A program made the translations under genes and the position numbers. The notes under the pieces are model-generated. The model did not search any database and was not told the origin of the DNA. It saw nothing but the letters and a program-made list of their open reading frames with translations. Of a stretch of 64,000 bases of DNA, positions 10,493 through 46,518 are shown piece after piece (position 1 is the stretch's first letter; every line of letters begins with the position of its first letter). Origin of the DNA: Infirmifilum lucidum (GTDB taxonomy: Archaea > Thermoproteota > Thermoprotei > Thermofilales > Thermofilaceae); the NCBI RefSeq assembly GCF_014876775.1, contig NZ_CP062310.1, forward strand, positions 620,001 through 684,000, given 5' to 3'.

Positions 10493-10583
10493 GGGCCGGT
10501 CGTCTAGCGGGAGGATGCCGCCTTGGCACGGGCAGTAGCTCACAGAATGGCGGAGGTCCCGGGTTCGAATCCCGGCCGGTCCA
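10493..10583 (+). tRNA. tRNA-Ala (anticodon GGC) with a 19-nt intron
   Basis: The acceptor stem GGGCCGG/CCGGTCC has the alanine-specific G3:U70 pair and an A discriminator. The anticodon loop is TTGGCAC (GGC). The anticodon stem CCGCC/GGCGG is interrupted by a 19-nt insert at 10530-10548, position 37/38. Outside the anticodon arm the sequence matches the tRNA-Ala(TGC) at 2476 almost base for base, while the introns differ. Confidence 0.95.
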
Positions 10584-24488: not shown

Positions 24489-24964
24489 ACCCTTCCCCGC
24501 ACGGCCATTATAGAGTCGGCGCTATGGCCGTAGTAACCGAGAACGGTTCTCGTGCTGTGCCTGCCGAGCGTCACTATAAGACTTGGCCTTATAAGCTTTA
24601 GTTGTCTTAGGAGGAAGGGCAGGCAGGCTTGTATCTCCTCGTCATGGGGGTCTCTGTTCCCCGGGGGCCTACACTTCACCACGTTGGTTATGAATACATT
24701 CTCCCTGGGAATCCCATTTGACGTCAAAAGAGAGGTTAGCAGCTGGCCTGCCGCCCCCACAAAAGGCCTCCCCTGCTGATCCTCGTTGGAGCCTGGAGCT
24801 TCCCCAATGAATACTACGCGGCTACAGGGGTTACCCTCGCCTGGAACTGCATTAGTCCTGGACGCGTGGAGAGGACAGCGTCTACAAGCTCTTATTTCCT
24901 CTGCTATTTTCTCGAGCTCTTCATGTAGCCTTGTACACTCATTCGTAGAGTACGAGCTCTGCAT
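24311..24964 (-). CDS. uracil-DNA glycosylase, family 4, with PCNA-binding tail
   Basis: Removes uracil from DNA formed by cytosine deamination, frequent at high temperature. The 217-residue enzyme has motif 1 'GEAPGSNEDQQGRPFVG' (residues 54-70), four cysteines placed as the [4Fe-4S] ligands of family 4 (C27, C30, C98 and C114), and 'FPTLHPAAALYNPRL' as motif 2 with the substrate His. The C-terminus 'QSTLDEFF' (residues 209-216) fits the PIP-box consensus Q-x-x-L-x-x-F-F, which docks on the PCNA clamp. The N-terminal 26 nt overlap the dehydratase gene at 24939. Confidence 0.93.
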   Translation of the reverse strand: MQSSYSTNECTRLHEELEKIAEEIRACRRCPLHASRTNAVPGEGNPCSRVVFIGEAPGSNEDQQGRPFVGAAGQLLTSLLTSNGIPRENVFITNVVKCRPPGNRDPHDEEIQACLPFLLRQLKLIRPSLIVTLGRHSTRTVLGYYGHSADSIMAVRGRVYRIEAEWGELVVFPTLHPAAALYNPRLRTILEDDFKHIATVLQGKGSKGQSTLDEFFR

Positions 24965-25346
24965 GACTCCGCCCCACGCGGATCTCCGCGAGCGACCCTG
25001 GCCGGATCTTGCCTAGGCTCGCCTCGTCTATCCCCGTCATTGACGGAATACCCGATATTATGCACCCTATTATCACGACCTCGTCGGGCCTAACAGTAAC
25101 CACTCCTGCGGGGGCAACACCACGTTTAGCCATGCGCAGTAGGACATAGGAGCCAACAGTACTGCCCTTCGAGTGGGGGAAAACTAGGATTTTACCCGCC
25201 AATTTTTCCCCCTTCAGGGGGTGGGAGGGCTCGACTACCTCAGAAGTCTTTGGGTCGACGCCGCCAAAGAAGGTTATGGGCTCTCTGGACAGCAGTACTT
25301 GGCCTCTCGCGACACCCTCGGAAACAGGCCGGCCAGCAATCCTCAC
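24939..25346 (-). CDS. phosphomevalonate dehydratase, small subunit (AcnX swivel domain)
   Basis: With the large subunit this enzyme dehydrates 5-phosphomevalonate to trans-anhydromevalonate 5-phosphate in the archaeal mevalonate pathway. The 135-residue sequence matches the aconitase-X swivel (DUF126) pattern: 'GRPVSEGVARGQVLLSREP', 'ITFFGGVDP', 'LKGEKLAGKILVFPHSKGS', 'TVGSYVLLRMAKRG' and 'GIPSMTGID'. The 5' end of the coding region overlaps the end of the large subunit gene by 4 nt. The gene overlaps UDG by 26 nt downstream, making a three-gene operon. Confidence 0.9.
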   Translation of the reverse strand: MRIAGRPVSEGVARGQVLLSREPITFFGGVDPKTSEVVEPSHPLKGEKLAGKILVFPHSKGSTVGSYVLLRMAKRGVAPAGVVTVRPDEVVIIGCIISGIPSMTGIDEASLGKIRPGSLAEIRVGRSHAELVLYE

Positions 25347-26539
25347 TCCTCCTCACCGACTGCGTATGCTAGTGCCTCCCTCCGCGTTTTCAGCGCCACT
25401 CTATATCCTTGAGCCTTGAGGTAGAAGGCTGCTTTGCCAGAATCTGTCACGACTTCTTCTCCCGCGTAGCCGGAGAGGGGTGAGACAACCATACAAGTGT
25501 CTGCGAAAACGAACACATTTTTCTTCCTGAGCTTTTCTACGTACCCACCTATAGAGTCATAAACCTGCCTGCTAGTGTAAAGCATGACTCTCCGCTTGGC
25601 GGATCCTCTCTCCGAAAAGAAGCTAATTACGTCCAAGACCTCCTCTAGGGAGAGGTGGGGGCAGCCTAGCACGACGACCCCGTCGGATAAGTCGTCGCGG
25701 TACTCCTCGTGAACTTCTTTGACTAACACGGGGTCGATGGACACTTTCTCGACGCCAGTAGAGTCATAGCGCTCCGGCGAAACATTATCGATCAGGACTA
25801 GGCCCATTCCCCCTGTCGCCCCCGCAGCTGCTAGCAGGAGCTTTACGTCGCGCACATCCTCCCTCGTTAGGCCCAGTCCCTTGACAAGTGGCACTTTGTC
25901 TCCGGCAAGCTTGCCGATTAAGAGGCCGGCGACTTGATAGAGGCTCTTCTCTCTGATTATCTGGGACGCCTCGCGGAAGTCTATGACTAGTTGCGGCCTT
26001 CTGTTGGAGTCGAGATGTAAGCCGGCAAGCGGGGCTCTGCCAGAGATAGCCTCTAGGAGCGCGAGCGGCCCCCCATCCCTATTCGTGCGTGCCCCGATGA
26101 CGCTGTTCGCGTACAAGACGGCATTGCTCTCAGACCAGGCTACGTGATCTCCGAACTGGATGTTTTCGTATAGGTAGGGCGTGCATGTGAGGGTGGGTCT
26201 CACCCCCATATCCGAGAGAGCCTTAATAATCCTGAACTGTTTCTCCATAAAATCCCTAGAGACACCCATGTAAGGCCACAACACTGTGTCGAAACCGCCT
26301 GGGTTCATCGTCGCTGGTACACTTACGCGCGCGCCCCTGCGGGCGAGACCCTCGAGAAACTCTAGACCCTCGTCTCCAATGTTCTTGTATGATATGCCAG
26401 ATACGTGGGCGTGTTTTATCCTTACCAGGCGCTGAGCACCAGCAGCCTCGGCTACTCTTACTACGGCCTTGAGGGCGAGGGCCTTCGCTTCTCCATACTC
26501 CCCGTCGAGTATCTTTTCCTCTTCAGGTTCCAGGTACAT
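25343..26539 (-). CDS. phosphomevalonate dehydratase, large subunit (AcnX catalytic domain)
   Basis: A 398-residue aconitase-X catalytic subunit. Recognisable segments are 'KHAHVSGISYKNIGDEGLEF', 'PATMNPGGFDTVLWPYMGV', 'GDHVAWSESNAVLYANSV' and 'GARTNRDGGPLALLEAI'. Cysteines in 'TCTPYL', 'LGCPHLS' and 'DTCMVVSP' are placed as iron-sulfur ligands. It precedes the swivel subunit with a 4-nt overlap. HMG-CoA synthase and thiolase of the same pathway are at 47351-49564. Expected partner decarboxylase and kinases are not in the window. Confidence 0.92.
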   Translation of the reverse strand: MYLEPEEEKILDGEYGEAKALALKAVVRVAEAAGAQRLVRIKHAHVSGISYKNIGDEGLEFLEGLARRGARVSVPATMNPGGFDTVLWPYMGVSRDFMEKQFRIIKALSDMGVRPTLTCTPYLYENIQFGDHVAWSESNAVLYANSVIGARTNRDGGPLALLEAISGRAPLAGLHLDSNRRPQLVIDFREASQIIREKSLYQVAGLLIGKLAGDKVPLVKGLGLTREDVRDVKLLLAAAGATGGMGLVLIDNVSPERYDSTGVEKVSIDPVLVKEVHEEYRDDLSDGVVVLGCPHLSLEEVLDVISFFSERGSAKRRVMLYTSRQVYDSIGGYVEKLRKKNVFVFADTCMVVSPLSGYAGEEVVTDSGKAAFYLKAQGYRVALKTRREALAYAVGEEE

Positions 26540-26724: not shown

Positions 26725-29487
26725 ATGACGGCGCCCAAGACCCGTGGCCTCCTCGTGCTCCTGTTCGCCCTGCTCTCACTGCACCTGCTAGTCGCTGGCT
26801 CCTCGCCATGGACTGCCTCTACTCTGTCATTTGATGGGTTCAGGGTGATTGCAACTGCAGTAAACCAGAACGGCACCCTTATAGCTGTAGCCTATGGGGA
26901 CAGCGTATATTACAGGCGCTTTGTAGACGTGTACACGCTGAACCTCACGGTACTCTACAGGCTACAACCGAGTAATTTCAGCGACGTGGCCCTGGCATTC
27001 CTCGATAACTCAACGCTTATCGTGACAGAGTATGTTATGGGCTCTGTTATCCCTTATTCCTACGTTCACTTGATTGACCTCAGGGGAGGAGTACACCTTA
27101 GGTCGCCGAAAATACCTGGGACAGACTTAACTGGCCTTAAGAAAGCAATTGCAACAGGTTCATACATATACTTACTGACAGAGAAGTACCTCGTGGGTTT
27201 CACGCGAGATCTAAACCAGAGAACATACCTCAAGACATTCCGGAACACTGGCTTACAAGTAGTACCGCTCGACGGCAAAGTTCTAGCTTTGTCTATAGAG
27301 ACACTCTGCCATATATGCCTTGAGCAGAACGAGAAGGTCATTACTCTGATCACGCCAGGAGGCGAAAAGAACTATACTCTCTACCATGTCCTATCACTGG
27401 TAAACCTCCCTAGCGGCAACATAGGCATAGTATACGATAACCTTATCGTCGAAGAAGTCACCCTCTCCGAGGCTGGAATAACGGCCATTACTAAGCTACA
27501 GCTCCCCATACTACTAGGAGCTACGTCCGAGCCGGACTACAAACTCCTTTACGGTTTATCAGTCAACGACCTTGAGATGAAGCTCGCAGTCTATAACCTC
27601 GCAAACAGGATCCTGAGGAGCTTCACCCTACCTCTACCCTACGCGAAGGGCGACAAGGTCGGGGTGAGAGTGTATGACAGCGGAACGTTTGCGGTGTGGA
27701 ACGGAAAAACTGTCGTCTTGGGCAATTTAAGCGGGGTGATGTACACCCTGGATGCCGGCTTTGCTGTCAGAGACGTCTACTACAGCAACAACAGGGCGTT
27801 TATTGTGGGTAGCGACCGCGTACTCGTCTTCCAGAGGGCGCCCTTGGACGAAAATTACACCCTTGTGCTCGACGTAGTCTCAGAGGACGGGGAGAAAGTA
27901 GACAACTTCACCCTGAAGATTAACGGTGAGACTATAGGAGTCTTCTCGGGATCGCTTAACTTGACGCTAAAGGGAGGCGTTTACAACATTACAGTCACGA
28001 CCCCGAACTACGTAGCCGTGACCTTCCCCCTCAACCTCACCAGCAACACTAGAAAGATCGTCACTCTACACCGGGTAAGGTACCCTCTCATCGTCCACGC
28101 CTCGACGACTGGAGGAGATCCAGCTGAAATCGTAGTATACCGGGGTAACGTGAGCCTAGCCCGCGGAGTGGGGTACCTCGAGGTACGCCTCCTACCGGGA
28201 AACTACACTGTAGTCGCTTCCTACGGTAACGTGACGCTGAGTAGGACGCTGAGCCTTAGTGGGAGGGAGGAGATAACTGTTGTGCTGAACGCTACGGCGT
28301 CGCAGCAAAAACCCAGTAGTCCTAGGCCTCCTGCCCCTACAGGGGAGAACAGCACTCTCACGGTAGTCGTGTATGGTGAGGAAACGTGTCCGGAGTGTAG
28401 ACGTACGAGAGAACTGCTCGGAAGAATAGTCGGGCAAGTCTATTTCAGGGACATTGCTAACCAGACATTCCTCCAGGAGTACGACTACCTGTATCAAATG
28501 GCATTCTCAGGATACCCGCGGATCGTCCCCCTAACTCTCGTCTTCAAGGGAAAGCTCCTCCACGCAGTTGTAGCAGGCTCCCTTGCCGAGCCGGACTGGC
28601 GTAGAATCCTGGGCTTGAAAACAAACGGTTCCACCCTGGTAGTGACAAGCCAGGGCGAGTGGATGTACCGTTCTCTCAACTCGACAGAGGCCTACCTTGT
28701 CGCAGTGAGGGGGTTCGCCCCAGCAAGTCCGGTCTATGCCCAGAAGCCCTCTGCGATCCTGCCTTTAGTCGTGGCACTAGCGGCTGCTGACTCGATTAAC
28801 CCTTGCACATTCATGGTCTTTGCTGCGCTAGTGATAGCGATTATGGGGTTCGCTGGGAGGAGGAAAGCTACTGTGGCCTCCGCCGCTTTTATCTCGGCAG
28901 TGTACATCTGCTACTTCTTGCTGGGCTTAGGCCTGATAAAGTTCATATCGTTCTTCAACTGGCTCAGGTACATTATTGCCGCGGCAGTAATAGCTGCAGG
29001 CGCATACTCGCTAGCCCAGTCGAGCATACTGTGGAGGGAAGGGTGCAGAGACACTTCCAATAGCCTAGGGGGAGCACCCTCCCTTATGGCCAGGCTCTAC
29101 AGTCTCTCCGCATCTATTTTCCAAAGGATTAATGAGGTTTCGCGTTCTCTTCTATCCAAGGCGCAGAAAGGTAGCGTTGTTACAGCATTTCTGGCCGGAG
29201 TCGTAGTTAGTTTCACATTGCTGCCCTGTAGCAGTGGCCCCTACCTGGTGGCAGCGTATATGCTTGCTGGAGAAGATACTATAGTGTCGCTTCTACTCCT
29301 AATGCTCTACAATGCAGTCTTCGTTCTACCCCTAGTCCTGATAGCCGCCGGCGTAATTGTCGGCGGGAGAATCCTCCTAATGGTAGACGTCGCCACTATC
29401 CGGATCAACGCTTTGCGAAGATGGACCGAGCTCGCGCTTGGCCTATTACTAATCCTCCTCGGGGTGTACATTATCCTCCACCACTAG
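26725..29487 (+). CDS. secreted propeller-thioredoxin-DsbD-like fusion protein
   Basis: A 920-residue exported thiol-redox protein. Order of parts: signal peptide ('GLLVLLFALLSLHLLVAGSS'); beta-propeller-like domain (about 30-390) with 'IETLCHICLEQNEKV', C195 and C198; two PEGA or carboxypeptidase-regulatory-like repeats (about 395-525); a Pro-rich linker; a thioredoxin/glutaredoxin-like domain with 'CPEC' (C555, C558); and a DsbD/CcdA-type membrane domain with conserved Cys in 'DSINPCTFM' (C694) and 'LLPCSSGPY' (C835). It would pass electrons from the cytoplasm to outside thiols. ATG 26725 lies about 34 nt after the TATA-like attataaaag and gives the same CxxC numbering as its paralogue at 42517; the frame extends to GTG 26671. 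Confidence 0.85.
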   Translation: MTAPKTRGLLVLLFALLSLHLLVAGSSPWTASTLSFDGFRVIATAVNQNGTLIAVAYGDSVYYRRFVDVYTLNLTVLYRLQPSNFSDVALAFLDNSTLIVTEYVMGSVIPYSYVHLIDLRGGVHLRSPKIPGTDLTGLKKAIATGSYIYLLTEKYLVGFTRDLNQRTYLKTFRNTGLQVVPLDGKVLALSIETLCHICLEQNEKVITLITPGGEKNYTLYHVLSLVNLPSGNIGIVYDNLIVEEVTLSEAGITAITKLQLPILLGATSEPDYKLLYGLSVNDLEMKLAVYNLANRILRSFTLPLPYAKGDKVGVRVYDSGTFAVWNGKTVVLGNLSGVMYTLDAGFAVRDVYYSNNRAFIVGSDRVLVFQRAPLDENYTLVLDVVSEDGEKVDNFTLKINGETIGVFSGSLNLTLKGGVYNITVTTPNYVAVTFPLNLTSNTRKIVTLHRVRYPLIVHASTTGGDPAEIVVYRGNVSLARGVGYLEVRLLPGNYTVVASYGNVTLSRTLSLSGREEITVVLNATASQQKPSSPRPPAPTGENSTLTVVVYGEETCPECRRTRELLGRIVGQVYFRDIANQTFLQEYDYLYQMAFSGYPRIVPLTLVFKGKLLHAVVAGSLAEPDWRRILGLKTNGSTLVVTSQGEWMYRSLNSTEAYLVAVRGFAPASPVYAQKPSAILPLVVALAAADSINPCTFMVFAALVIAIMGFAGRRKATVASAAFISAVYICYFLLGLGLIKFISFFNWLRYIIAAAVIAAGAYSLAQSSILWREGCRDTSNSLGGAPSLMARLYSLSASIFQRINEVSRSLLSKAQKGSVVTAFLAGVVVSFTLLPCSSGPYLVAAYMLAGEDTIVSLLLLMLYNAVFVLPLVLIAAGVIVGGRILLMVDVATIRINALRRWTELALGLLLILLGVYIILHH

Positions 29488-29531: not shown

Positions 29532-30449
29532 CTATGGCTTCATTAGTGTGAGGGGGGTGAGATAAGCCTCTGCAAGGAGGAAACCCGCAGACACTATGGA
29601 GAGCTGTAGCGCGGAGTGGATCAAACCTGCCGAGGCTCTACCGTGTTTCAGCTTCCCCGCGATTAATCCCCCGGAGAAGGCTGTCATTGCTCCAGAGTAC
29701 AGCATGATCGTCTCGTACAGCCGGGGGTCTAGCGCGCCGAAAAAGCCTCCCGTTCTCTGGATCGCGCCCAAAGGAATGACGAAGACATAGAGAATCGTCA
29801 GCGCCAGGACTAGGTAAATTATCGTCGAGGCATAGACCGTTATGACGTGGGGATTAATTGTCGTGGACTTCTCCTCGTCGTAACTCCTAAGAGCCGCAAA
29901 TATCTCCGCCGCTGACTCCAGCACGTCTATTACCCTGCCGCCGCTCTCGTTTGCAGTTATGAGGATGGTGACTGCTTTCTCCACGTTCGCATCCCTGATC
30001 CTCTCGGGGATCCTTCTTAGCGCCTGGCCTAGGGGCTCTCCCAATTCTACGTGTACAAGAGCCCTCTTTACCTCGGCGCTGAGGGATCCTGGCATTGTCT
30101 CCGTCACCGAGCGTAGTGCTCCGTGGAACGTTAACCCTGACCTCACAGCCTCTGCGAGAGACTTGAAGAAGTGCGGGAGCACCTGCGTTATCCTTGCAAC
30201 GTATAGTCTGTTGAGAGAGTCGACCACGGCGTAGGGAAGGAACAGCAGGACTATAGACGCAAGTAGTAAGACGTTGACCCGCGTAGAGGTAACTATCACC
30301 AGAGCCCCTCCAACTACCTTCAGGCTTGAGAGCAGCTCGCCACGTAGTCCCGTGAGGACGAGGAGCACCGGTATTGAGGCCAGCGCGAGTCCGAGGGAGA
30401 AGAGGAGAAACAGCCGCCTGGAGTCTAGTTGCAGGTAGGGCATACTCAA
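29532..30449 (-). CDS. type II/IV secretion membrane protein (TadC-like, T2SSF domain)
   Basis: A 305-residue inner-membrane platform protein of a type IV pilus-like machine. The central T2SSF domain is seen as 'LPHFFKSLAEAVRSGLTFHG', 'RALVHVELGEPLGQALRRIP' and 'TANESGGRVIDVLESAAEIF'. Several membrane helices flank it ('FLLFSLGLALASIPVLLVL', 'STIIYLVLALTILYVFVI' and two at the C-terminus). It is the last gene of the ATPase-TadB-TadC operon and overlaps the preceding gene by 4 nt. Confidence 0.85.
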   Translation of the reverse strand: MSMPYLQLDSRRLFLLFSLGLALASIPVLLVLTGLRGELLSSLKVVGGALVIVTSTRVNVLLLASIVLLFLPYAVVDSLNRLYVARITQVLPHFFKSLAEAVRSGLTFHGALRSVTETMPGSLSAEVKRALVHVELGEPLGQALRRIPERIRDANVEKAVTILITANESGGRVIDVLESAAEIFAALRSYDEEKSTTINPHVITVYASTIIYLVLALTILYVFVIPLGAIQRTGGFFGALDPRLYETIMLYSGAMTAFSGGLIAGKLKHGRASAGLIHSALQLSIVSAGFLLAEAYLTPLTLMKP

Positions 30450-31291
30450 ACCCTCGACATCAGGCCGTCTATGGCGATGTAGATTCCTAGAGCGGAGAAC
30501 GGGATGACAATAAATGTCAGGACGAGGATCAATATGTCGGGTGAAAGCCCGAGGACACCTCCGCCGAGTACATTCATAACTATCAGCATTGTTATGAACA
30601 TGAGTGGTGCGGCGACCATCATCGTGGTATACACTTCTGCTAGCATAGAGAGAGTGTTCACGAGACTACGCAATCTTTGAGTCTTCTCGTCTAGCATCAG
30701 CTTAGCGTAGTGCATAAGAACGCTCTTTAAATCGCCGCTAGTAGCGTATGCCTCCCTAAGTGCTAGGATGAACGACGACAAGAGCGCACTTGGCGAGCGG
30801 GACGCCAGCCTAGCCAGAGCAGTTAGAGTGTCAAGGCCAAGAGCCTTGATGTCTCTTAGCGTTAGGAAGAGCTCTCTGCGCAACTCCCTATTTGTCTCGT
30901 AGACAGCAACTCTCTCTAGTAGTCTCTCCAACCCCATACCGGAGGAGGCAAGAGAGGCCATGTACGCCACGGTGAACGGCAAGTCCTTCTCGATGCTTAC
31001 GCGGCGGGAGTAGGTTCTATAGACCGGGTAGTATAGGGCGAGCCCTGTGAATATGGCGGTGGTAGCAAAAGTGAGGAGGAGGGATGCGGGCAGCGCTAGG
31101 AGAGGGTTCATATTGAAGAGAGAAACGTGGATAAGCGTGAGGACTACGGCAGAAGTAATTAGCAAGAGCACGAGCGCTCTCGCAACGTTGAGAATATACG
31201 TTTCGAATGGGTCGTTGAAGCCTGCCCTCTCGTAGTACTGCCTAAAAGGCTCAGCGAGTTGCAGGAATCTAGCCGTGAGCGATTCGATCAC
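30446..31291 (-). CDS. type II/IV secretion membrane protein (TadB/FlaJ-like)
   Basis: A 281-residue membrane protein with the second T2SSF domain of this machine: 'DLPFTVAYMASLASSGMGLE', 'LALREAYATSGDLKSVLMHY' and 'LMLDEKTQRLRSLVNTL'. Membrane segments lie near residues 35-85 and at the C-terminus ('LMFITMLIVMNVLGGG', 'ILVLTFIVIPFSALGIYIAI'). Two separate T2SSF proteins plus one ATPase is the archaeal pilus or Tad layout. It begins 12 nt after the ATPase gene. Confidence 0.85.
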   Translation of the reverse strand: MIESLTARFLQLAEPFRQYYERAGFNDPFETYILNVARALVLLLITSAVVLTLIHVSLFNMNPLLALPASLLLTFATTAIFTGLALYYPVYRTYSRRVSIEKDLPFTVAYMASLASSGMGLERLLERVAVYETNRELRRELFLTLRDIKALGLDTLTALARLASRSPSALLSSFILALREAYATSGDLKSVLMHYAKLMLDEKTQRLRSLVNTLSMLAEVYTTMMVAAPLMFITMLIVMNVLGGGVLGLSPDILILVLTFIVIPFSALGIYIAIDGLMSRV

Positions 31292-31303
31292 GAGACAACC
31301 ACC

Positions 31304-32827
31304 TCATGCCTCTCTCGCTCGCACATAGTAGCCGCTCATCAGCAGGTGGAGCGTCTGCTCGGGGTTCTTGTAGTAGTCTCTTATAACCTGGCTTATTCTC
31401 TCATAAGACGTTATACCTGCCTTAGCCATGTACTCGATGACGGAGACTCTCCTCTCTAGCTCCTTCTGGATCTCGCCGAGAGTGGTGAACTTCTCCTCTG
31501 CTATCCTCTTTAGGTGCTCGCTCTCCGAGACCCACTCGGCTCTGTCGAGCACTGGGTTTATCCTAAAGACTTCGCGCGTGGCGACGGTGTTCCTTGCTTC
31601 ATCAACATCCAGCAACTCCTGAACGCTCACGACGCGTCTAACCACCTTCTCGCCTATCTTAAGTCTCCTCACTAGGATGACGACATTCATCATGGGAATT
31701 AGGAAGAGCGGCACGTTCATCGGTGGAGAGACTAGTCTCTTCACGGCATAGTCTACGTTTTCGGCGTGCAGGGTGCACATGCCGGCGTGGCCTGTTGCTA
31801 TTGCCTGGAATAGCGTGAAGGCTTCTTCACCCCTCACCTCGCCGATTATTACGTAGTCTGGCCTCATCCTCATTGCACTCTTGAGTAGATCGAAGAGGTC
31901 TACGTTCCTAACCCACTCTTCGTAGCTAGGCCTTGTAACCAGCGGAACCCAGTTCTCGTGCGGTAAGCGTAGCTCGGGTGTGTCCTCGATGGTCACGACT
32001 TTTGCTTCGGGGCGAATGAATGTAGCGACGGCGTTCAGGGTCGTGGTCTTCCCGCTTGCTGTTGCACCAACAATCATCACGCTTCTATTATTCTCGATGA
32101 GGTACCAGAGGTATGCCGCTAGCTGCGGCGAAATAGTCCCCATGTTCACCAGGTCTATAAGGGAAAAGGGGATCTCCCTGAACTTCCTGATCGTGAAAGT
32201 TCCGCCCCGCCTCGAGACCTCGTCCAGAGTTACGTGGAGCCGGTATCCCATGGGAAGTGCTCCCTCGACTATCGGTTGGGCTATAGAGACTTGCTTGCCA
32301 GCCCTATAAGTGAGCTTCAGTATCAGGCTCGTAAGCTCCTCGGGATCGCTGAAAACTATGTTCGTGGGTATAGACTCGTACCGCCGGTGCCAGACGTACA
32401 CAGGCGCCCCAAGCCCGTCGCACGAAATGTCCTCGATTTCCTTGTCCTTTAGGAGCGCGTCTATGCGGCCATACCCTATGGTGTCTCGTTTTATGTAGTA
32501 CAGGTATTTCTCGAGAGACTCGCCCGGAGCCTCTATCTTGTACCGCTTGATAACGCGCCTAACTTCTTCTTCGAGAAAAGCCTCTGGTTCGGATGTCAGT
32601 CTTTGGAGGGCCCTGTCAAGCCGCTCCGTAGATGAGAGCAAGAGGATCCTCTTGACTCTTTCAAGAACCCTGATATCCTCGAGGGTGAGAGGTGGTTCTA
32701 GCAGGCGGTACTCGATACCCCCGTCGCGCCTCCTAACTATTAGGGCATACGCAAACGGTGGAGATATCTCGTAGAATTCGAGGAGAACCTCTCCCCCGTC
32801 TACCCTGGCATTACGTTGTATCTCCAT
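31304..32827 (-). CDS. type IV pilus/secretion system ATPase (GspE/FlaI family)
   Basis: A 507-residue hexameric ATPase that powers pilin assembly. It has an N-terminal domain with 'YYIKRDTIGYGRIDALLKDK' and 'EIEDISCDGLGAPVYV', Walker A 'IVGATASGKTTTLNAVATFI', Asp box 'VVTIEDTPELRLPHENWVP', Walker B 'PDYVIIGEVRGEEAF' and His box 'ATGHAGMCTLHAE'. The C-terminal tail after residue 430 is helical. It is followed by two T2SSF proteins. No pilin gene lies nearby, so whether it builds adhesion pili or an archaellum cannot be told; the lack of fla accessory genes favours pili. Confidence 0.93.
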   Translation of the reverse strand: MEIQRNARVDGGEVLLEFYEISPPFAYALIVRRRDGGIEYRLLEPPLTLEDIRVLERVKRILLLSSTERLDRALQRLTSEPEAFLEEEVRRVIKRYKIEAPGESLEKYLYYIKRDTIGYGRIDALLKDKEIEDISCDGLGAPVYVWHRRYESIPTNIVFSDPEELTSLILKLTYRAGKQVSIAQPIVEGALPMGYRLHVTLDEVSRRGGTFTIRKFREIPFSLIDLVNMGTISPQLAAYLWYLIENNRSVMIVGATASGKTTTLNAVATFIRPEAKVVTIEDTPELRLPHENWVPLVTRPSYEEWVRNVDLFDLLKSAMRMRPDYVIIGEVRGEEAFTLFQAIATGHAGMCTLHAENVDYAVKRLVSPPMNVPLFLIPMMNVVILVRRLKIGEKVVRRVVSVQELLDVDEARNTVATREVFRINPVLDRAEWVSESEHLKRIAEEKFTTLGEIQKELERRVSVIEYMAKAGITSYERISQVIRDYYKNPEQTLHLLMSGYYVRAREA

Positions 32828-32945
32828 GGATCCCCTCTATGTTAATTCTGTAGGATGATCCTCAAATAAAAAAATAGTGCCTCCTAATTATTCGCAAAAG
32901 AAAAGAATATACTGGCTTCTAGCGTTTAAAAATTAGAAATTGACT

Positions 32946-33911
32946 ATGGCGGGTACTGGGTCATTACGGCACGACGAAATGGTGTATCTCAAGTCCCTCG
33001 CAAACGCCCTGCAGGAGCTCGTAGTGAGTCTTTTCGAGGAGGGGGTTAGCGAGATACTTGTAAACCCTGGTGAGGATGACCCATACTCTAAGATAGCCGG
33101 GAGGTACGGGATCTCCAGGGAGGCGCTCCTAGAAGAGGCTGTGAAAAGAGGTTTTCTCAAGCCAGTTGTCGCCGACAGGCTGGTTTTCTGCCCGAAGTGC
33201 GGTAACACCAGCTTCAAGGCCCGCTATGCCTGCCCGAGCTGCGGATCTCGTGACGTCGAAAAGAACACTTTATTCAGCCACGTCATGTGCGGGTACATAG
33301 GAGTACTAGAGTCGGCCCCAAAAGACGCCCGGGGGAACACCTTGTGCCCTAAGTGTTCCCGGCCGCTCGGCACTCAGGACAAGGACTGGGTTAAGATAGG
33401 GGTAACGTACAGGTGCAAGGGTTGTGGCCTCACGTTCAGTGTCCCGTCGACCCTCCTCGAGTGCACTTCATGCGGCAATGTTTTTGACCATAGGGAGGCT
33501 ACTTACAAGGAGATATACAGGTATTCTGTTGACAGGAGCATTTTAGCTAATGCGTATGGCCAGGTTCTCTCCAAGAGGGTAGCTGAGGCCATTGCCTCTA
33601 AGGGCTACAAGGTGCACTTCAACGCAGAAATTATAACGCTGAGCGGCTTGAAGAAGAAAGTTCCAATGCTGGCCGAAAAGGGCTCGGAGAAGTTCGTCGT
33701 TGAGACTGTTTTCCCGCGCGAAGACGATGCTGTAAAAGCCCGAGAAGAAGTTTTGAATGCTTACGGCAGGACGCTAGACTCGAACGAGAAACACCTAATA
33801 GTAGCCGTGAAAGCACCGGCAGAGCTTTCTCGTAAACCTGAACACGTCGAAACTATCAGAGGAGATAGCCTCGAAGATGCTATCCGGAAGTTAAGGGAGA
33901 AGCTCAAATGA
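32946..33911 (+). CDS. zinc-ribbon protein with TackOD1-like domain and possible nuclease-fold tail
   Basis: A 321-residue three-part protein. Residues 1-80 are helical. The middle has paired zinc ribbons 'FCPKCGNTSFKARYACPSCG', 'HVMCGYIG', 'CPKCSRPLGTQDKDWVKIG' and 'RCKGCGLTFSVPS...CTSCG', which resembles the TackOD1 output domain of archaeal signal-transduction proteins. The C-terminal 120 residues ('YGQVLSKRVAEAIASKGYKV', 'KFVVETVFP', 'NEKHLIVAVKA') look like a restriction-endonuclease-like alpha/beta fold. These readings are by eye. ATG 32946 was chosen; TTG 32940 is also possible. It overlaps the next gene by 4 nt. Confidence 0.7.
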   Translation: MAGTGSLRHDEMVYLKSLANALQELVVSLFEEGVSEILVNPGEDDPYSKIAGRYGISREALLEEAVKRGFLKPVVADRLVFCPKCGNTSFKARYACPSCGSRDVEKNTLFSHVMCGYIGVLESAPKDARGNTLCPKCSRPLGTQDKDWVKIGVTYRCKGCGLTFSVPSTLLECTSCGNVFDHREATYKEIYRYSVDRSILANAYGQVLSKRVAEAIASKGYKVHFNAEIITLSGLKKKVPMLAEKGSEKFVVETVFPREDDAVKAREEVLNAYGRTLDSNEKHLIVAVKAPAELSRKPEHVETIRGDSLEDAIRKLREKLK

Positions 33912-35209
33912 AGACAATTTTCCTCAGTGGCAAGAGGTGGATGCGCACACGGGAGCCCGTAAGTGTTCTCATCTCTTCCGCAGAGGCCTGTAACGGAGTT
34001 ACTATAGTGAAATTCAAGGCCGGAGATACGGAATATGTTGTACCCGTCGAAAAGTGCTCATGCCCTTCAAAGCACACCATGGAGATAGACGGCGAGGTCT
34101 TCTGCGAGGCCGAGTACTGTCCAGACTTCCTTCAAAGGCTCTCCTCGTGTAGTTCTATCAAGCTCAGAAAACACGCGTCAGTACAAGCACTAAGACTGGA
34201 GGGCGTGCTTGCAGAAGACGCGACTAACCCCCATCTCATCGTCTCTGCAGAGAGCGGGGAAAAGTTTGTCTTGAAGGGCTACAGGCTTAGCTCGCGGTGG
34301 AACCCCGAGCCTGCATTCCTGGAGCACTTGAGCAATACGGGTATCTCTCCGGGGCTGATCCTGTCTTACTCCCTGGATGAGCAGGTTCTCGGGATACTCA
34401 CAGAGTACATCGAGGGCGGCACTGACCCCGGCTCAATACTCTATGAGAGCATGGTATCTACTCTTCAGGGGGACTACCGAGTGCCGGAGAGCGAGCTCGG
34501 TGGCGTTGCGGCAACGATCGCAGCTTTCCACAACAGGATGCTCGAGTGTAAGGAAGACTGGTGTAGGCCTCGCTATGCCGAGCGCACAGATATAGACAGG
34601 TGGCTGGGAAGGACAGCCTTCTACCGCTTAAAACTCGAGAAGCTTGGATGGAATATAGGTAAGGCCTGGGCGTACTTGAGCCAGCCTGTAGAGGAAGGTT
34701 TTTCCAGGTCGCTCGGGCAGAGGATTTTACGCACACATGGAGACCTGCACTTCTCACAAATGCTAATGAAGTCGAACAACTTCTATATTTTGGACTTCGA
34801 GGGGGAGCCCGGGAGGCCTGCAGAGTTCCAGAGAGATCTTGAGCCGGCGATCCGCGATGTTGCCACCATGCTTAGAGGGCTGTCCTATATAGTCTTCTTT
34901 GCAATAGCGAACACTCTGAAACTAAGCCAGGAGGAGGCGTTCAACTACGTCTTGAGCGGCGACAGCCGTGTAAGACTCGCAAGCGACTGGGCGCAGGAAG
35001 TGAGCGACGTACTACTTGAGGCGTACTTGAGGCGTATTAACAGGGAGATAGTGCCAGCATCCTCGCCAGAGGAGGCTTATCGCTTGGTCTTGCCGTGGTT
35101 CGTGGAGAGAGCCCTATACGAGGCGTATTATGAGGCCAGCTACCGGGCCGACAACATATATGCCGCGCTCGCAACACTCTATAAAACAATCCCACCTCTT
35201 AATTTATAA
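33908..35209 (+). CDS. maltokinase-like protein kinase-fold enzyme
   Basis: A 433-residue protein. The C-terminal 300 residues match the maltokinase or aminoglycoside-phosphotransferase fold: 'KFVLKGYRL' (nucleotide Lys), 'GILTEYIEGGTDPGS', catalytic 'RTHGDLHFSQMLM', metal Asp 'YILDFEGEPGRPAEFQRDLE' and 'IRDVATMLRGLSYI'. Bacterial maltokinases make maltose 1-phosphate for the GlgE pathway. The N-terminal 90 residues hold a Cys cluster ('CSCPSKHTMEIDGEVFCEAE') absent from typical maltokinases. It is coupled to the zinc-ribbon gene upstream, and glycogen synthase lies 1.3 kb away. The true substrate is uncertain. Confidence 0.75.
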   Translation: MKTIFLSGKRWMRTREPVSVLISSAEACNGVTIVKFKAGDTEYVVPVEKCSCPSKHTMEIDGEVFCEAEYCPDFLQRLSSCSSIKLRKHASVQALRLEGVLAEDATNPHLIVSAESGEKFVLKGYRLSSRWNPEPAFLEHLSNTGISPGLILSYSLDEQVLGILTEYIEGGTDPGSILYESMVSTLQGDYRVPESELGGVAATIAAFHNRMLECKEDWCRPRYAERTDIDRWLGRTAFYRLKLEKLGWNIGKAWAYLSQPVEEGFSRSLGQRILRTHGDLHFSQMLMKSNNFYILDFEGEPGRPAEFQRDLEPAIRDVATMLRGLSYIVFFAIANTLKLSQEEAFNYVLSGDSRVRLASDWAQEVSDVLLEAYLRRINREIVPASSPEEAYRLVLPWFVERALYEAYYEASYRADNIYAALATLYKTIPPLNL

Positions 35210-41830: not shown

Positions 41831-41842
41831 TTGTCTCTCTTG

Positions 41843-42520
41843 ATGAAGGAGATTTACCGCAAGATAGTCCATTTGGGTTTGAGCTCTCTCCTTATATGCC
41901 CGTTCATCCTCCACCTCCCCGAACCCCTAGATATCCGCGTCTACTACTCTCTTGGGCTCTTAGCGGCAGCCCTTATCAATAGTGCAGTTGTGAGGAGATC
42001 TAAGCTTAGGGTAGAGCTTGAGAACTTTTCGAGTGAGCTACACAAGTTCGTCGACAGTTTTGGAGAGAAGACAAGGATGCCTCTCGCAGTGATTGAAGAG
42101 GCTATAGACGAGTTCCACGGCTTTATCGAGAGGCAGCTTTCGTTACTTGAGAGAGATTACGAGAAAAGAGAGGGATATGTCGGCCTACTGTACGGGATGA
42201 TAGGCGCAGTCATAAGCCTCCTCGTGGATCCCTGCCACACCTTCTACGGTATCACGGCTCTCGCTGTAGTCGACACTGTAGCGTCGATCTCTAGTATGGC
42301 AATATGGCATAGGGGTAAGAGCCTGGGAGGGGAGGCTGTGGCTTTCCTCGTATATGCCTCTCTACTCGTTGTTAGCGGTAGCAGTGCCCTACAGGCCATA
42401 GTAGTGTCGCTTCTTGCGGTAGTGTCGGAATACTTCTCACCGGAAGATAACCTGACAGTCCCGGTTGTCGCAACCACTACTGCTATGTTGCTGGGCGCGC
42501 CCCCGCACTGCCCGCTCTAA
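41843..42520 (+). CDS. dolichol/polyprenol kinase-like membrane protein
   Basis: A 225-residue membrane protein starting 'MKEIYRKIVHLGLSSLL', the N-terminal hallmark of the SEC59/phytol-kinase family, which phosphorylates polyprenols or diacylglycerol with CTP. A central soluble helical insert (about residues 50-110) is unusual. The C-terminal helices contain 'ALAVVDTVASISSMAIWHRG' with Asp in the place of the family's D-x-x-A-x-x-x-G and 'KSLGGEAVAFLVYASLLV'. A TTG at 41831 is possible instead of ATG 41843. Its 3' end overlaps the convergent gene's stop by 4 nt. Confidence 0.65.
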   Translation: MKEIYRKIVHLGLSSLLICPFILHLPEPLDIRVYYSLGLLAAALINSAVVRRSKLRVELENFSSELHKFVDSFGEKTRMPLAVIEEAIDEFHGFIERQLSLLERDYEKREGYVGLLYGMIGAVISLLVDPCHTFYGITALAVVDTVASISSMAIWHRGKSLGGEAVAFLVYASLLVVSGSSALQAIVVSLLAVVSEYFSPEDNLTVPVVATTTAMLLGAPPHCPL

Positions 42521-45126
42521 AAAGTTGTTTCTCCCAGTACTTCGTCCGCTAGCCTTAAGGCTTGAGTGTTATCGCTACGTAGGCTACTACTGAGAGGACG
42601 AATATTGCCAGTATAAGGGCTGAGACCAGCCTCTTTCTCCTGTCTCTTCTCGCCGGCATTCCCACCACCCGCTATAATCGATAGTACAAGGAGAAAAAGA
42701 CCTGTAATTATTAAGGTTTCCGGCGCCACGACTCTGCCAGCGGTTAAAATAGAGGGCAGGCCGGTAGAGTTGAGTAGAGAGGCGTACTTGTTCTGAGCCT
42801 CTTCAAGCTCTTTCTTCGCCCCTATGCCTACGAGAACTAGGCTCCCGTCCTTGATTACAAGGACTGTGGGGAAGGAGGTCGCGTTCACTTGGCTTGCTAT
42901 CCTTACATCATCGTATCCAATAGGCCAGGTTATGTTGTTATCTAGCGAGTATCTCTTAAGTATATCGGGCGTATCAGTTTGCGAAACAGTTATGGACACA
43001 ACGACTGTATCGTTCCTCTCTGAGAGCCTCTTCAGGAGAGGTATAAGGTACTTGCAGCCCGTGCACTGTGTATAGAACAACTCTATTACGAGGATCTTGT
43101 TCCAGGAAGCCTCGGCGAGGTCTAGTTGCTGTCCATTGTAGAGAGTTATGCTCCCTAGACTCACGCTCTTGCTCACCCTCCTGGAAACTAGTGTCTCGTT
43201 GCCTATGCGTGCAAGGATTTCGGCCAAGTGCGCCTCCTCGCCCGTTTTGATAAGGCTACACTCCACGCGTACTACGAGATTGTCTAGCCCTGTGCGCCAC
43301 ACAATTGTAGACGCATTCAGCCGACACGTATAGTTCCCCGGTGTTTCCACAATGGACATTTGGTAGCTACCGGCTTCCAGCTTTACTGTTTTAACCAGCC
43401 CCTGCTCGACACCAACAACAACAGGTGAACTAGGGGAGTCTATTCTAGAAATCTTTACCTTGAGGGAGGTCTCTCTAGGAGAAAGCAGCGTTAAGTTGAA
43501 GGTTTCCCGTTTCAGCGTTACAGTCAGGTTTCTGTTTTGTTCGAGGGAGAAGTTGAGGGACTGAGAAATGTATAGGGGTGCCTGCACTCTCAGCGAGTAA
43601 TTCCCCTTTAGGAGGTCTATTGAGACTTCTCCAGACGCAGGTGTTGTTAGCTCATAAGCCTCTGATCCGCTAATACTTACTCTAGCTCCAGGTATAGGTT
43701 CCCCCCTTTCGCCTACAACCCTAACAACAAGCAGGAACCTTTTAGGCCGCTCTCTATCCATCCTGGTCTCAAATACTATTGTCGGCTGGTTAACCGTTAG
43801 CGAGAACTTGTTCTCGGAGTACCCTTGCTTGAGCACCTCAACGGTGTAATTGCCAGGCGGGACTATTAGCTTTGCCCATCCTGTAGAGTTTGTCAAAGTG
43901 CTGTAGCTACTGCCCCCAGATACTATGTTCACGTTTGCGTCACTGATTTGTGCACCGTCTCGGTCTACAACCCTAATATATACGGTGGATCTAGCCAGCG
44001 GGTAAAGGAAGACTAAATAGTTATTCCCGTACTTCGCTATGAACAGTTGCTCTGAGTTCCTGCTCTCGACAGGATCCCACGAGAGACTGGGCCAGTCTAT
44101 CTGGTATCTGCCTATAAGTACTGGCGGGTTTCTATAGTCTGTGGCGTAGAGGAGCACGTCACTTACGGTAAATATCGCTATTAGGTTCTGCGAGAAAACT
44201 CTCACGCTACGTTTGGTAGGGATCGAGAAGAAGTTTGTACAGCGGAGAGAGGCATCACAGAGGCTTGTAGTACCGTCCCAGAATACTACTACGAAGTTGC
44301 TACCGAGCGGAACAATCTGGGCTATAGGTTGCATTCCCCTATCTGCGAGAATTCTAAGATCCGGCAGTGACAGAACGAAGGTTTCATGTTGCCCACCATC
44401 ATCCTTAACCCGTTGCGCTACTACATACCCTGCTCCCACGGCTTTTGTTGTCAGGCCTGTCTGCAGAGAAGCCACTTTGACTACGCCGCTGGCTGTAACG
44501 CTGTAAACTTCGATTTTGTTGTCTGTGAGTTGGCACAACTCGCAGAGAGTATCTATCGTCTCTACTACGAGGTATCTCTGGTAGAAATCTAGGGAGAATA
44601 TTTTGCACAGGACGTCGTTAGAGTTCACGTCTCTCTCGAAAACCCTATTCCTCCTGGAGAGATCTATAACCACGAGCCTATCGAGTTTTGCGCTCTTCAC
44701 TGTGTAGACGATGTCTAGGGCGAGAAACCTTCCATCTTGGCTTAAGGACGCGCGGGATACGTAGACTTCATCGCTTTTCGCTATAGCGGAGAGCGAGTAC
44801 AGGGGTTCTAAAGTGGATGAGTTTATGACAATAACTGTACCTGAAGAGTCTACTATTACTAGCGTAGATGCATTATAGAACATTCCAACAACGTCTAGCC
44901 CTATAGGTTTTATCACCCTGGAAATGGTGCTCCCAGCGTTGAAATCTATTAAAGCCAGCGAGCCGTTAGAGAAGCTTATATAGGCTTTACTCCCAGCTGG
45001 CAGGAATGCTTCCACAGGTGCCCCGAAAGACCTTATCTCATAGCTATATACCGGTGTAGAGAACATATGCTGAGCAACGTACAATGCTGCTAGCAGGAGT
45101 AGCACTAGGATTACTTGCCTTACCAT
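42517..45126 (-). CDS. membrane-anchored propeller-thioredoxin protein
   Basis: An 869-residue extracytoplasmic protein. Order of parts: signal anchor ('VILVLLLLAALYVAQHMF'); a propeller-like beta-rich domain with 'IDTLCELCQLTDNKI', C195 and C198; three PEGA or carboxypeptidase-regulatory-like repeats ('GAQISDANVNIVSGGSSYST', 'YTVEVLKQGY', 'GEPIPGARVSISGSEAYELT'); a thioredoxin-like domain 'IELFYTQCTGCKYLIPLL' (C688, C691); and a membrane helix ('LIITGLFLLVLSIIAGGG'). The last 45 residues look non-biological and overlap a different-frame small ORF, so a frameshift or true overlap is possible. Paralogue of 26725-29487, without the DsbD-like part. Confidence 0.8.
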   Translation of the reverse strand: MVRQVILVLLLLAALYVAQHMFSTPVYSYEIRSFGAPVEAFLPAGSKAYISFSNGSLALIDFNAGSTISRVIKPIGLDVVGMFYNASTLVIVDSSGTVIVINSSTLEPLYSLSAIAKSDEVYVSRASLSQDGRFLALDIVYTVKSAKLDRLVVIDLSRRNRVFERDVNSNDVLCKIFSLDFYQRYLVVETIDTLCELCQLTDNKIEVYSVTASGVVKVASLQTGLTTKAVGAGYVVAQRVKDDGGQHETFVLSLPDLRILADRGMQPIAQIVPLGSNFVVVFWDGTTSLCDASLRCTNFFSIPTKRSVRVFSQNLIAIFTVSDVLLYATDYRNPPVLIGRYQIDWPSLSWDPVESRNSEQLFIAKYGNNYLVFLYPLARSTVYIRVVDRDGAQISDANVNIVSGGSSYSTLTNSTGWAKLIVPPGNYTVEVLKQGYSENKFSLTVNQPTIVFETRMDRERPKRFLLVVRVVGERGEPIPGARVSISGSEAYELTTPASGEVSIDLLKGNYSLRVQAPLYISQSLNFSLEQNRNLTVTLKRETFNLTLLSPRETSLKVKISRIDSPSSPVVVGVEQGLVKTVKLEAGSYQMSIVETPGNYTCRLNASTIVWRTGLDNLVVRVECSLIKTGEEAHLAEILARIGNETLVSRRVSKSVSLGSITLYNGQQLDLAEASWNKILVIELFYTQCTGCKYLIPLLKRLSERNDTVVVSITVSQTDTPDILKRYSLDNNITWPIGYDDVRIASQVNATSFPTVLVIKDGSLVLVGIGAKKELEEAQNKYASLLNSTGLPSILTAGRVVAPETLIITGLFLLVLSIIAGGGNAGEKRQEKEAGLSPYTGNIRPLSSSLRSDNTQALRLADEVLGETTF
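42555..42659 (-). CDS. candidate 34-aa single-TM protein overlapping the thioredoxin gene
   Basis: In the frame shifted from the thioredoxin protein's tail, an ATG at 42659 opens a 34-codon ORF ending TAA. Its protein has a basic start 'MPARRDRRKRLV' and one hydrophobic helix 'SALILAIFVLSVVAYVAI'. GGTGGTGGG lies just upstream as a possible ribosome-binding site. This looks more like a real membrane segment than the main frame does here. Either it is a tiny gene, or a frameshift (real or sequencing) would join it to the thioredoxin protein as a second membrane helix. Confidence 0.45.
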   Translation of the reverse strand: MPARRDRRKRLVSALILAIFVLSVVAYVAITLKP

Positions 45127-45127
45127 A

Positions 45128-45568
45128 CTACTCGGTCTCCTTCAAGAGTATCCTAACAGGTATCCCATTTAATGTCTGAACGACAATAGATATACCTGTT
45201 AGCTCCTCTCCGGACGACAGGGAGCTTCCCAGCTTGTATAGAATCTCTCTCACGCGGGATAGGGCCTCAAGCGACTCCCTCTGAGACTCTATCGTCTCCT
45301 CCAGCACGTTCAACTCGTCAACGGCTCTCGCGTTGACGACGACTTTTAGCCCCATATAGTCGATTTCGTTGAGCGAGGAGAGCTTCTCGCCCAGTAAGTC
45401 TTCGAGAACTCTCTCCAGCGCTTTCATACGCTCAGCTCTCACACGCACGGCTTCATACCGCTGCTCGAGTTGCTGGAGAGTGCCCTGGATGGTTGCTATC
45501 TCGGCTTCAATGTACCTCAGTAATTCATCAAAGCTATTAAACTGGTAAATGTTGTAGGACACGGCCAC
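45128..45568 (-). CDS. coiled-coil protein upstream of the thioredoxin protein
   Basis: A 146-residue protein without a signal peptide. It is mostly helical, with a coiled coil over about residues 15-60 ('ATIQGTLQQLEQRYEAVRVR') and another at 90-120, and a short beta-rich end 'GISIVVQTLNGIPVRILL'. No family is recognised. The GTG start is used, preceded by an A/T-rich element centred about 22 nt upstream. It ends 1 nt before the propeller-thioredoxin gene, so both are probably translated together. Confidence 0.65.
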   Translation of the reverse strand: MAVSYNIYQFNSFDELLRYIEAEIATIQGTLQQLEQRYEAVRVRAERMKALERVLEDLLGEKLSSLNEIDYMGLKVVVNARAVDELNVLEETIESQRESLEALSRVREILYKLGSSLSSGEELTGISIVVQTLNGIPVRILLKETE

Positions 45569-45732
45569 CCACTTTTAAAGCCTTAATATGTTTAAAAAAA
45601 TTAACGTGTATTGACTCTACCCAGAGCACCCCCCGCTCACTGCTGCCACTCTCCGCCGACGTCCTTTTGAATGAAAGACTTCGAGAAATGCATGCCAGCC
45701 TACGACAACAGCTTCCACCGACTGTTAACTTC

Positions 45733-46518
45733 CTACTTCCCAAATCTTCTGTGCCTGGACTGGTATACCCTTATAGCGCGGAGTAGGTCTATCTTCCTGA
45801 AATCTGGCCAGTATACATCGAGAAAAACAAGTTCCGAGTAAGCTATCTGCCACAACAGGAAGTTACTTATCCTTTCCTCGCCACTTGTCCTGATAACAAG
45901 GTCTGGGTCTGGGTAAGGCTGGTCGCCCGTGTACAGGTACCTCTGGAATACTTCTTCGTCCACGTCTTCCTCTGATAGCTTGCCAGTTTTTACGTCCTTT
46001 ATGAGTTGTCTCACGGCTTCAACTATCTCTCTGCGTCCGCCGTAGGCCACGGCGATGTTGAGGAACCTGTCGGAGAATCTGGATGTGTAGTTTTCCAGCT
46101 CTTTAATCTTGGACACTATAGTTTCAGGAAGCAGGCTCAAGTCTCCTATGAATTTCACGCGGACTCGCCGCTTCTCGAGCTCTCTGGAGGATTTTAGCTG
46201 CTTGATTTTCTCCTCGAGTAGACTCAGGATTTCTTCTACCTCACTCCTACTCCTCCTCTGTAGATTTTCTGTTGACAGAACGTAGAGGGTCACTGTCTTA
46301 ACCCCCAAGTCATAGCACCATTTCAGCACTTCTTCGGCTCTCTCAGCCCCGTAGCGGTGCCCTAGCCACGGTGGTAGCCCTCTGTAGGTAGCCCATCTCC
46401 TATTGCCATCGAGTATGAACGCTACGTGATTTGGAATATTTCCACTCTTGACCTCTCTCTCAAGTAAGCGCTCATAGATCTTGTAGACTCCGAGTGCCCT
46501 TACAAGAGACCGCCACAC
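45733..46518 (-). CDS. uppS: cis-prenyltransferase (undecaprenyl/dehydrodolichyl diphosphate synthase family)
   Basis: Adds isoprene units in cis to make the long polyprenyl diphosphate used as glycan carrier for N-glycosylation. The 261-residue enzyme has the five family regions: 'HVAFILDGNRRWATYRGLPP' (catalytic Asp), 'GHRYGAERAEEVLKWC', 'YVLSTENLQRRS', 'NIAVAYGGRREIVEAVRQLI' and 'PDPDLVIRTSGEERISNFLL' with 'AYSELVFLDVYWPDF'. Divergent from deoC. Gap of 47 nt between the starts. Confidence 0.93.
   Translation of the reverse strand: MWRSLVRALGVYKIYERLLEREVKSGNIPNHVAFILDGNRRWATYRGLPPWLGHRYGAERAEEVLKWCYDLGVKTVTLYVLSTENLQRRSRSEVEEILSLLEEKIKQLKSSRELEKRRVRVKFIGDLSLLPETIVSKIKELENYTSRFSDRFLNIAVAYGGRREIVEAVRQLIKDVKTGKLSEEDVDEEVFQRYLYTGDQPYPDPDLVIRTSGEERISNFLLWQIAYSELVFLDVYWPDFRKIDLLRAIRVYQSRHRRFGK

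What the first reader, a model, noticed from the sequence alone, without database searches (positions are those of the whole stretch)
26725..29487. Paralogous extracellular propeller-thioredoxin proteins: a possible new thiol-redox system
This protein and the one at 42517-45126 share the same layout and both have T-L-C-x-x-C at residues exactly 195 and 198, in matching contexts (I-E-T-L-C-H-I-C-L-E-Q-N-E-K and I-D-T-L-C-E-L-C-Q-L-T-D-N-K). Both add PEGA-like repeats and a thioredoxin-fold CxxC (CPEC, CTGC); only the first continues into a DsbD/CcdA-type membrane domain. A chain of cytoplasm to membrane domain to thioredoxin domain to propeller CxxC could reduce or repair surface proteins.
Basis: partly seen in the sequence, partly recalled or inferred. 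Interest (0 to 1): 0.75.

Follow-up and report, generated by a model that had tools for sequence, protein, structure and literature searches.

The report
Thiol-bearing propeller proteins of Thermofilum-like archaea
Two membrane-anchored proteins of a hot-spring archaeon share a propeller-shaped outer domain carrying an unchanging pair of cysteines, joined to two different kinds of thioredoxin domain, which points to an undescribed outside-the-cell thiol relay that has not been tested in the laboratory.

Summary
Both proteins (P1, 26725-29487 +; P2, 42517-45126, minus strand) carry CxxC at residues 195/198, then prealbumin-like repeats and a thioredoxin-fold CxxC. Only P1 continues into a CcdA/DsbD-like membrane domain. 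The propeller CxxC is not chance: every homologue covering the site keeps it (20/20 P2-type, 13/13 P1-type), although propeller identity falls to 14-20%. In the P2 set the two cysteines and one glycine are the only invariant residues. AlphaFold2 models give both proteins the same, probably 8-bladed, propeller with the CxxC in the same hairpin. Three architectures occur: propeller-repeats-Trx-CcdA, propeller-repeats-TlpA-anchor, and propeller-repeats-anchor alone, usually with Trx-CcdA as a separate gene. The two fused Trx domains are of different subfamilies, so the propeller was apparently paired with a Trx fold more than once. The family was found only in the window's own order (Thermofilaceae and relatives). 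Best reading: a CcdA-to-Trx-to-propeller dithiol relay outside the membrane. Electron flow, redox state and client are inferred. A structural disulfide or a metal site is not excluded. Repair of surface proteins is unsupported. Verdict: interpretation partly supported; new variant of a known kind.

The parts
26725..29487 (+). P1: N-terminal hydrophobic helix - propeller with CxxC - prealbumin/PEGA-like repeats - glutaredoxin-like Trx domain - 6-TM CcdA/DsbD-like domain (920 aa)
   Evidence: translation; AF2 model; homologues in the same genus
26809..27849 (+). P1 propeller domain (residues 29-375), about 8 blades
   Evidence: AF2 model, pLDDT about 85-93 over most of it; Foldseek matches to WD40 and BamB propellers
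27307..27318 (+). P1 propeller CxxC (CHIC, 195-198), B-C hairpin of blade 4, at the start of a short helix 196-200
   Evidence: invariant in 13/13 P1-type homologues
27850..28287 (+). P1 PEGA/prealbumin-like repeats (residues 376-521)
   Evidence: BLASTP to P2 repeats, E 3e-6; all-beta in the model
28360..28710 (+). P1 glutaredoxin-like Trx-fold domain (residues 546-662); active-site CPEC at 28387-28398
   Evidence: Pfam Glutaredoxin E 0.015, below cut-off; profile match to solved glutaredoxins, E 5e-5; strand/helix order of a Trx fold
28756..29481 (+). P1 CcdA/DsbD-like 6-TM domain (residues 678-919); Cys694 (28804-28806) in SINPC and Cys835 (29227-29229) in LLPCSSGPY
   Evidence: hhalign to DsbD_TM proteins of the same genomes 96.8%, E 2e-10, both Cys aligned; both Cys invariant in A6/A8
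42517..45126 (-). P2: N-terminal hydrophobic helix - propeller with CxxC - CarboxypepD_reg repeats - TlpA/ResA-like Trx domain - C-terminal TM anchor (869 aa)
   Evidence: translation; Pfam; AF2 model
43999..45048 (-). P2 propeller domain (residues 27-376), about 8 blades
   Evidence: AF2 model, pLDDT mostly about 90-95; Foldseek to designed 8-bladed propellers (TMt up to 0.74) and BamB (up to 0.67)
44533..44544 (-). P2 propeller CxxC (CELC, 195-198), B-C hairpin of blade 4, just before a short helix 199-202
   Evidence: invariant in 20/20 P2-type homologues
43483..43989 (-). P2 CarboxypepD_reg / PEGA repeats (residues 380-548)
   Evidence: Pfam PF13620 E 4.2e-24
42766..43194 (-). P2 TlpA/ResA-like Trx-fold domain (residues 645-787); active-site CTGC at 43054-43065
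   Evidence: Pfam Thioredoxin 4.6e-4 and AhpC-TSA 0.0079, both below cut-off; NCBIfam thioredoxin and ResA below cut-off; phmmer to solved thioredoxins, best E 3e-8
42670..42723 (-). P2 C-terminal transmembrane anchor (residues 802-819)
   Evidence: helix in the model; hydrophobic sequence
45128..45568 (-). 146-aa coiled-coil gene directly upstream of P2 (one base between stop and start), adjacent to P2 across most of the order
45733..46518 (-). cis-prenyltransferase (UppS-like), upstream of the coiled-coil gene and P2 in most genomes of the order
   Evidence: Pfam PF01255 E 1e-80; synteny

Best explanation
P1 and P2 are paralogous, membrane-anchored extracytoplasmic proteins built around one lineage-specific propeller whose CxxC sits in the B-C hairpin of blade 4, next to a short helix. 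In P1, reducing equivalents from the cytoplasm are taken up by the CcdA-like membrane domain (Cys694/Cys835), passed to the extracellular glutaredoxin-like CPEC, and from there to the propeller CxxC. The propeller acts as a docking platform with a second dithiol that reduces, or is kept reduced to hold, an extracellular client. P2 uses a TlpA-like CTGC domain in the same role and must receive electrons from P1 or another CcdA-type protein. Shown here: the domains, conservation of the cysteine pairs, common propeller descent, the unfused form and the different Trx subfamilies. Inferred: electron flow, its direction, the dithiol state and the client.
For: The propeller CxxC is invariant in 33 homologues from four families of the order. 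In alignment A4 only C195, C198 and G224 are invariant, so the pair is as constrained as the Trx active site. The propellers align at 96.2%, or 94.1% with the Cys masked, and form two order-wide clades, 94/90 support. The attached Trx domains differ: glutaredoxin-like in P1, TlpA-like in P2, only 11% profile probability between them; pairing of one propeller with two Trx subfamilies suggests functional coupling. Stand-alone propeller-repeat-anchor proteins (L107-L111) keep the CxxC, and four of those five genomes carry a separate Trx-CcdA gene. CcdA-type homology with both Cys aligned. A short helix begins at or just after the CxxC, a geometry common in redox-active CxxC motifs (general knowledge). 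A third Cys recurs about 25-29 residues after the first in both families, leaving an odd thiol in several members. No VKOR oxidase was found in 17 genomes of the order.
Against: No biochemical or structural measurement. A static disulfide would also be invariant. The CxxC is kept in proteins lacking any Trx domain. P2 has no electron donor in cis. The Trx-to-propeller distance is unknown (pTM 0.45 and 0.53). G019 has the unfused propeller but no detected Trx-CcdA of this kind (only a DsbD_TM protein; genome 84% complete). Unrelated single propellers reach up to 93% against the P2 profile, so the profile score alone does not prove close paralogy; the shared register and motif carry that argument.
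Confidence: 0.52

Rival explanations
1. Structural disulfide: C195-C198 is a fixed disulfide that rigidifies the blade-4 hairpin of a hot extracellular propeller. The Trx and CcdA domains act on other clients, or only help form or proofread it.
For: Extracytoplasmic location and thermophilic relatives; thermophilic archaea use disulfides for stability (PMC3177088). The CxxC persists in stand-alone propellers with no Trx domain. The models put it in a hairpin.
Against: Invariance at 14-20% identity, while other likely ectodomain disulfides (P2 290/296, 601/623) are lost in several homologues, is stronger than structural need suggests. Two pairings with different Trx folds. Extra odd Cys near the site in several members.
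Confidence: 0.23
2. Metal site: the CxxC, with a nearby His or third Cys in many members, binds Cu(I) or Zn(II). The Trx domains keep these thiols reduced for metal loading, by analogy with TlpA acting on Sco/CoxB.
For: The T-x-C-x-x-C context resembles soft-metal sites (general knowledge). In P1-type proteins 11 of 13 have a His at the start of the next blade, in five preceded by Cys (CH); six P2-type members have a Cys there (GEC/GAC/GGC).
Against: Only two Cys are invariant. The His/Cys neighbour is missing in most P2-type members, so no three- or four-ligand site is conserved. No metal-transport genes were noticed among the annotated neighbours.
Confidence: 0.13
3. P2 serves lipid-linked glycosylation: a Trx-propeller protein assisting N-glycosylation, somewhat like Ost3/Ost6, since it is encoded with a cis-prenyltransferase.
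For: UppS - 146-aa coiled-coil - P2 adjacency across most of the order; the next gene, 41831-42520, looks by eye like a dolichol-kinase-type membrane protein.
Against: The coiled-coil gene is widespread in genomes lacking P2, so P2 may simply sit in a housekeeping operon. No Pfam match for 41831-42520. P1 lies among unrelated genes. Ost3/Ost6 have no propeller (general knowledge).
Confidence: 0.07

Closest known systems
DsbD / ScsB / CcdA-Trx reductive pathway
   Same: 6-TM domain with one Cys in each of two PC-type motifs relaying electrons to an extracytoplasmic Trx-fold domain; P1's membrane domain is profile-related to DsbD_TM
   Different: No Pfam/NCBIfam match above cut-off; carries a propeller with a second CxxC and prealbumin-like repeats instead of DsbD-alpha
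NHLRC2 / SOQ1 (Trx-like plus NHL propeller; PMC6107167, PMC10173003)
   Same: Trx-like domain joined to a propeller; for SOQ1, lumenal redox transduction to a client has been proposed
   Different: In NHLRC2 the Trx domain is N-terminal to a 6-bladed NHL propeller and the motif is CCINC in the Trx domain; here the propeller is N-terminal, probably 8-bladed, and itself bears a CxxC; no sequence relation was found
TlpA / ResA thiol-disulfide oxidoreductases
   Same: P2's C-terminal domain has Trx/AhpC-TSA-type similarity and a CxxC
   Different: Fused behind a propeller and repeats; active site CTGC in FYTQCTGC; scores below family cut-offs
BamB / WD40-type 8-bladed propellers
   Same: Best fold and sequence resemblance of the propeller
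   Different: The conserved CxxC hairpin was not looked for in BamB; of 13 unrelated archaeal propellers checked, two have any CxxC and neither has this motif context
Selenium-binding protein / methanethiol oxidase (PMC10277263)
   Same: Propeller with a conserved CxxC-type (CSSC) motif
   Different: Its motifs are described as lying away from the propeller core together with histidine motifs, and it has no Trx domain (general knowledge); it was not among the fold or sequence matches listed

Membership tests
CcdA/DsbD transmembrane reductase (P1 C-terminal domain) | Six TM helices with a Cys in TM1 and in TM4, both in proline-cysteine motifs | tested here: met
   AF2 helices 678-919; SINPC694 and LLPC835, both Cys invariant in A6 and A8
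CcdA/DsbD transmembrane reductase (P1 C-terminal domain) | Sequence similarity to the curated DsbD_TM family | tested here: inconclusive
   No Pfam hit for P1; profile-profile match 96.8%, E 2e-10, to DsbD_TM proteins of the same genomes with both Cys aligned
CcdA/DsbD transmembrane reductase (P1 C-terminal domain) | Transfers electrons from cytoplasmic thioredoxin to an extracytoplasmic Trx-fold partner | not testable with these tools
   Needs biochemistry
Thioredoxin fold, P1 (546-662) and P2 (645-787) | Alternating strand/helix order with CxxC at the first helix and a Pro before the third core strand | tested here: met
   Models; P1-type profile matches glutaredoxins; P2 matches thioredoxins; P602 in RIVPLTLVF and P753 in SFPTVLV
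NHLRC2/SOQ1 | N-terminal Trx-like domain with CCINC followed by an NHL propeller | tested here: not met
   Domain order reversed, different active site, no NHL Pfam match
BamB/WD40-like propellers | Propeller of four-stranded blades | tested here: met
   AF2 and Foldseek; about 8 blades counted by hand from the strand lists
Zinc-ribbon or other structural zinc site | Four conserved Cys/His ligands | tested here: not met
   Only two Cys invariant in each propeller family

The most novel reading that the evidence does not exclude
A previously undescribed thiol-relay module in which an extracytoplasmic propeller, not a Trx fold, supplies a catalytic or client-holding dithiol at a hairpin-helix site, charged by different Trx-fold domains, one of them wired directly to a CcdA-type membrane reductase in the same chain.
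Probability: 0.4. Interest if true: 0.75.

Novelty: new variant of a known kind. Interest (0 to 1): 0.55.

Why it matters
How archaea control thiols outside the cytoplasmic membrane is poorly known. This family gives a defined set of proteins in Thermofilum and its relatives, with an invariant CxxC on a scaffold not usually used for thiol exchange and with the likely reductant fused in cis, so the question can be tested by trapping and mutating a few cysteines.

Tried and rejected
The genome-contig scan with the full P2 alignment found no usable stretch; with five close sequences it gave three loci, one labelled Spirochaetes that shows Thermofilaceae synteny and is probably mis-binned. Operon clues for P1 led nowhere: neighbours change between genomes (aconitase X, T2SS genes, a kinase-like gene, starch enzymes). 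A VKOR oxidase partner was sought and not found. A conserved four-ligand zinc site was sought in the alignments and not found. Treating the profile score alone as proof of paralogy was rejected after unrelated propellers scored up to 93% against the P2 profile. No paper on a DsbD-propeller fusion was found in the held library.

Full report
CHECK OF THE OBSERVATION. P1 (26725-29487 +, 920 aa) and P2 (42517-45126, minus strand, 869 aa) translate cleanly. Both have cysteines at 195 and 198, and the codons were verified. The identical numbering is partly luck, because starts vary and homologues with a complete N-terminus have the motif anywhere from about 180 to 258, but the sites are equivalent.

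The Trx-fold motifs are CPEC 555-558 and CTGC 688-691. Pfam sees CarboxypepD_reg (4e-24) and weak PEGA and thioredoxin in P2, and only a sub-threshold glutaredoxin in P1. Direct BLAST links the two proteins mainly through the repeats (E 3e-6).

CONSERVATION. Searching 121 related genomes and then 398 of the phylum found full-domain propeller homologues only in the window's own order. One relative's contig is named Thermofilum sp. NZ13 and another Thermofilaceae archaeon. Every homologue that covers the site keeps the CxxC: 13/13 P1-type, 19/19 P2-type plus L137. In the P2 full-length alignment only C195, C198 and G224 are invariant. Other ectodomain cysteines (P2 174, 290, 296, 601, 623) come and go.

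ARCHITECTURES. (a) propeller-repeats-Trx-CcdA (P1 and its orthologues; G008, G011 and, with the motif region cut off at a contig end, G013). (b) propeller-repeats-TlpA-anchor (P2). (c) propeller-repeats-anchor alone, 667-729 aa, in G010, G017, G019, G023 and G025; four of these five genomes carry Trx-CcdA as a separate gene, in places truncated by a contig end. The propellers form two clades, 94/90 support. The Trx domains of P1 and P2 are of different subfamilies (glutaredoxin-like; TlpA-like; profile probability between them only 11%).

FOLD. AlphaFold2 with 14 and 19 sequences gave mean pLDDT 79.0 and 81.4, with the propellers mostly 85-95 and pTM 0.45 and 0.53. Both models put strands at 185-191 and 204-210/211, with the CxxC in the hairpin between them and a short helix at 196-200 (P1) or 199-202 (P2). 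Counting strand groups by hand gives about eight blades, with the motif in the B-C loop of the fourth; by convention that loop lies on the top face with the inter-blade loops (general knowledge). Foldseek matched WD40 and BamB propellers, and for P2 designed eight-bladed ones.

HOMOLOGY OF THE TWO PROPELLERS. hhalign gives 96.2% (E 2e-9) over 310 columns, and 94.1% (E 1e-7) with the two Cys changed to Ala, in the same register. The reversed profile and 20 column shuffles reach at most 0.4%. Unrelated single propellers reach up to 93% against the P2 profile and 29% against the P1 profile, aligning mainly to blades before the motif. General propeller similarity therefore contributes; the common register and motif are what argue for close paralogy.

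MEMBRANE DOMAIN. P1 678-919 has no Pfam match, but its profile aligns with DsbD_TM proteins of the same genomes at 96.8%, E 2e-10, with SINPC694 and LLPC835 on the two DsbD-type cysteines. Both Cys are invariant in the 14 aligned members. The window genome has one further DsbD_TM protein elsewhere, and no VKOR was found in 17 genomes.

NEIGHBOURHOOD. P2 follows a cis-prenyltransferase and a 146-aa coiled-coil gene in most genomes of the order, but the coiled-coil gene also occurs widely without P2. P1's neighbours vary.

MECHANISM. The most likely reading is a reductive relay: cytoplasm to CcdA domain to extracellular CPEC to propeller CxxC to client, with P2 a parallel unit charged by another CcdA-type protein. 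The domains, conserved cysteines, fused and unfused forms and different Trx subfamilies are shown; electron flow, dithiol state and client are inferred. The strongest rival is a structural disulfide (0.23); a metal site is next (0.13). A third Cys or a His recurring about 25-29 positions after the first Cys leaves an odd thiol in several members, which fits a reactive or metal-binding site better than a simple disulfide but is not universal.

COMPARISON. The pathway resembles DsbD/ScsB/CcdA-Trx. Trx-propeller fusions are known in NHLRC2 and SOQ1 (PMC6107167, PMC10173003), with the domains in the other order and no propeller CxxC of this kind reported in the passages read. Selenium-binding protein is a propeller with a CSSC motif (PMC10277263). 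No paper describing this combination was found in the held library.

Noticed in passing
45128-46518: A 146-aa coiled-coil protein without a clear family, next to a cis-prenyltransferase, is found in 73 of 121 relatives including many without P2; its function is unknown.
   Followed up: partly
L137:1-6412: Contig QNBI01000129.1 titled Spirochaetes bacterium carries a P2 homologue and five further genes in Thermofilaceae order at 40-73% identity to the window; probably a mis-binned archaeal contig.
   Followed up: partly
29532-33911: T2SSE/T2SSF secretion-pilus type genes followed by a TackOD1-domain protein lie between P1 and a kinase-like gene; in some relatives they are not beside P1.
   Followed up: partly
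10493-10583: ARAGORN calls a tRNA of unknown type with a four-base anticodon (ggca); an intron-containing tRNA is a likely cause.
   Followed up: no
24939-26539: Aconitase X large subunit and swivel-domain protein as adjacent genes next to P1.
   Followed up: no
33908-35209: 433-aa protein with no Pfam match, adjacent to P1 in several relatives (L115, L116, L132, L134); looks by eye like a sugar kinase of the phosphotransferase type.
   Followed up: partly
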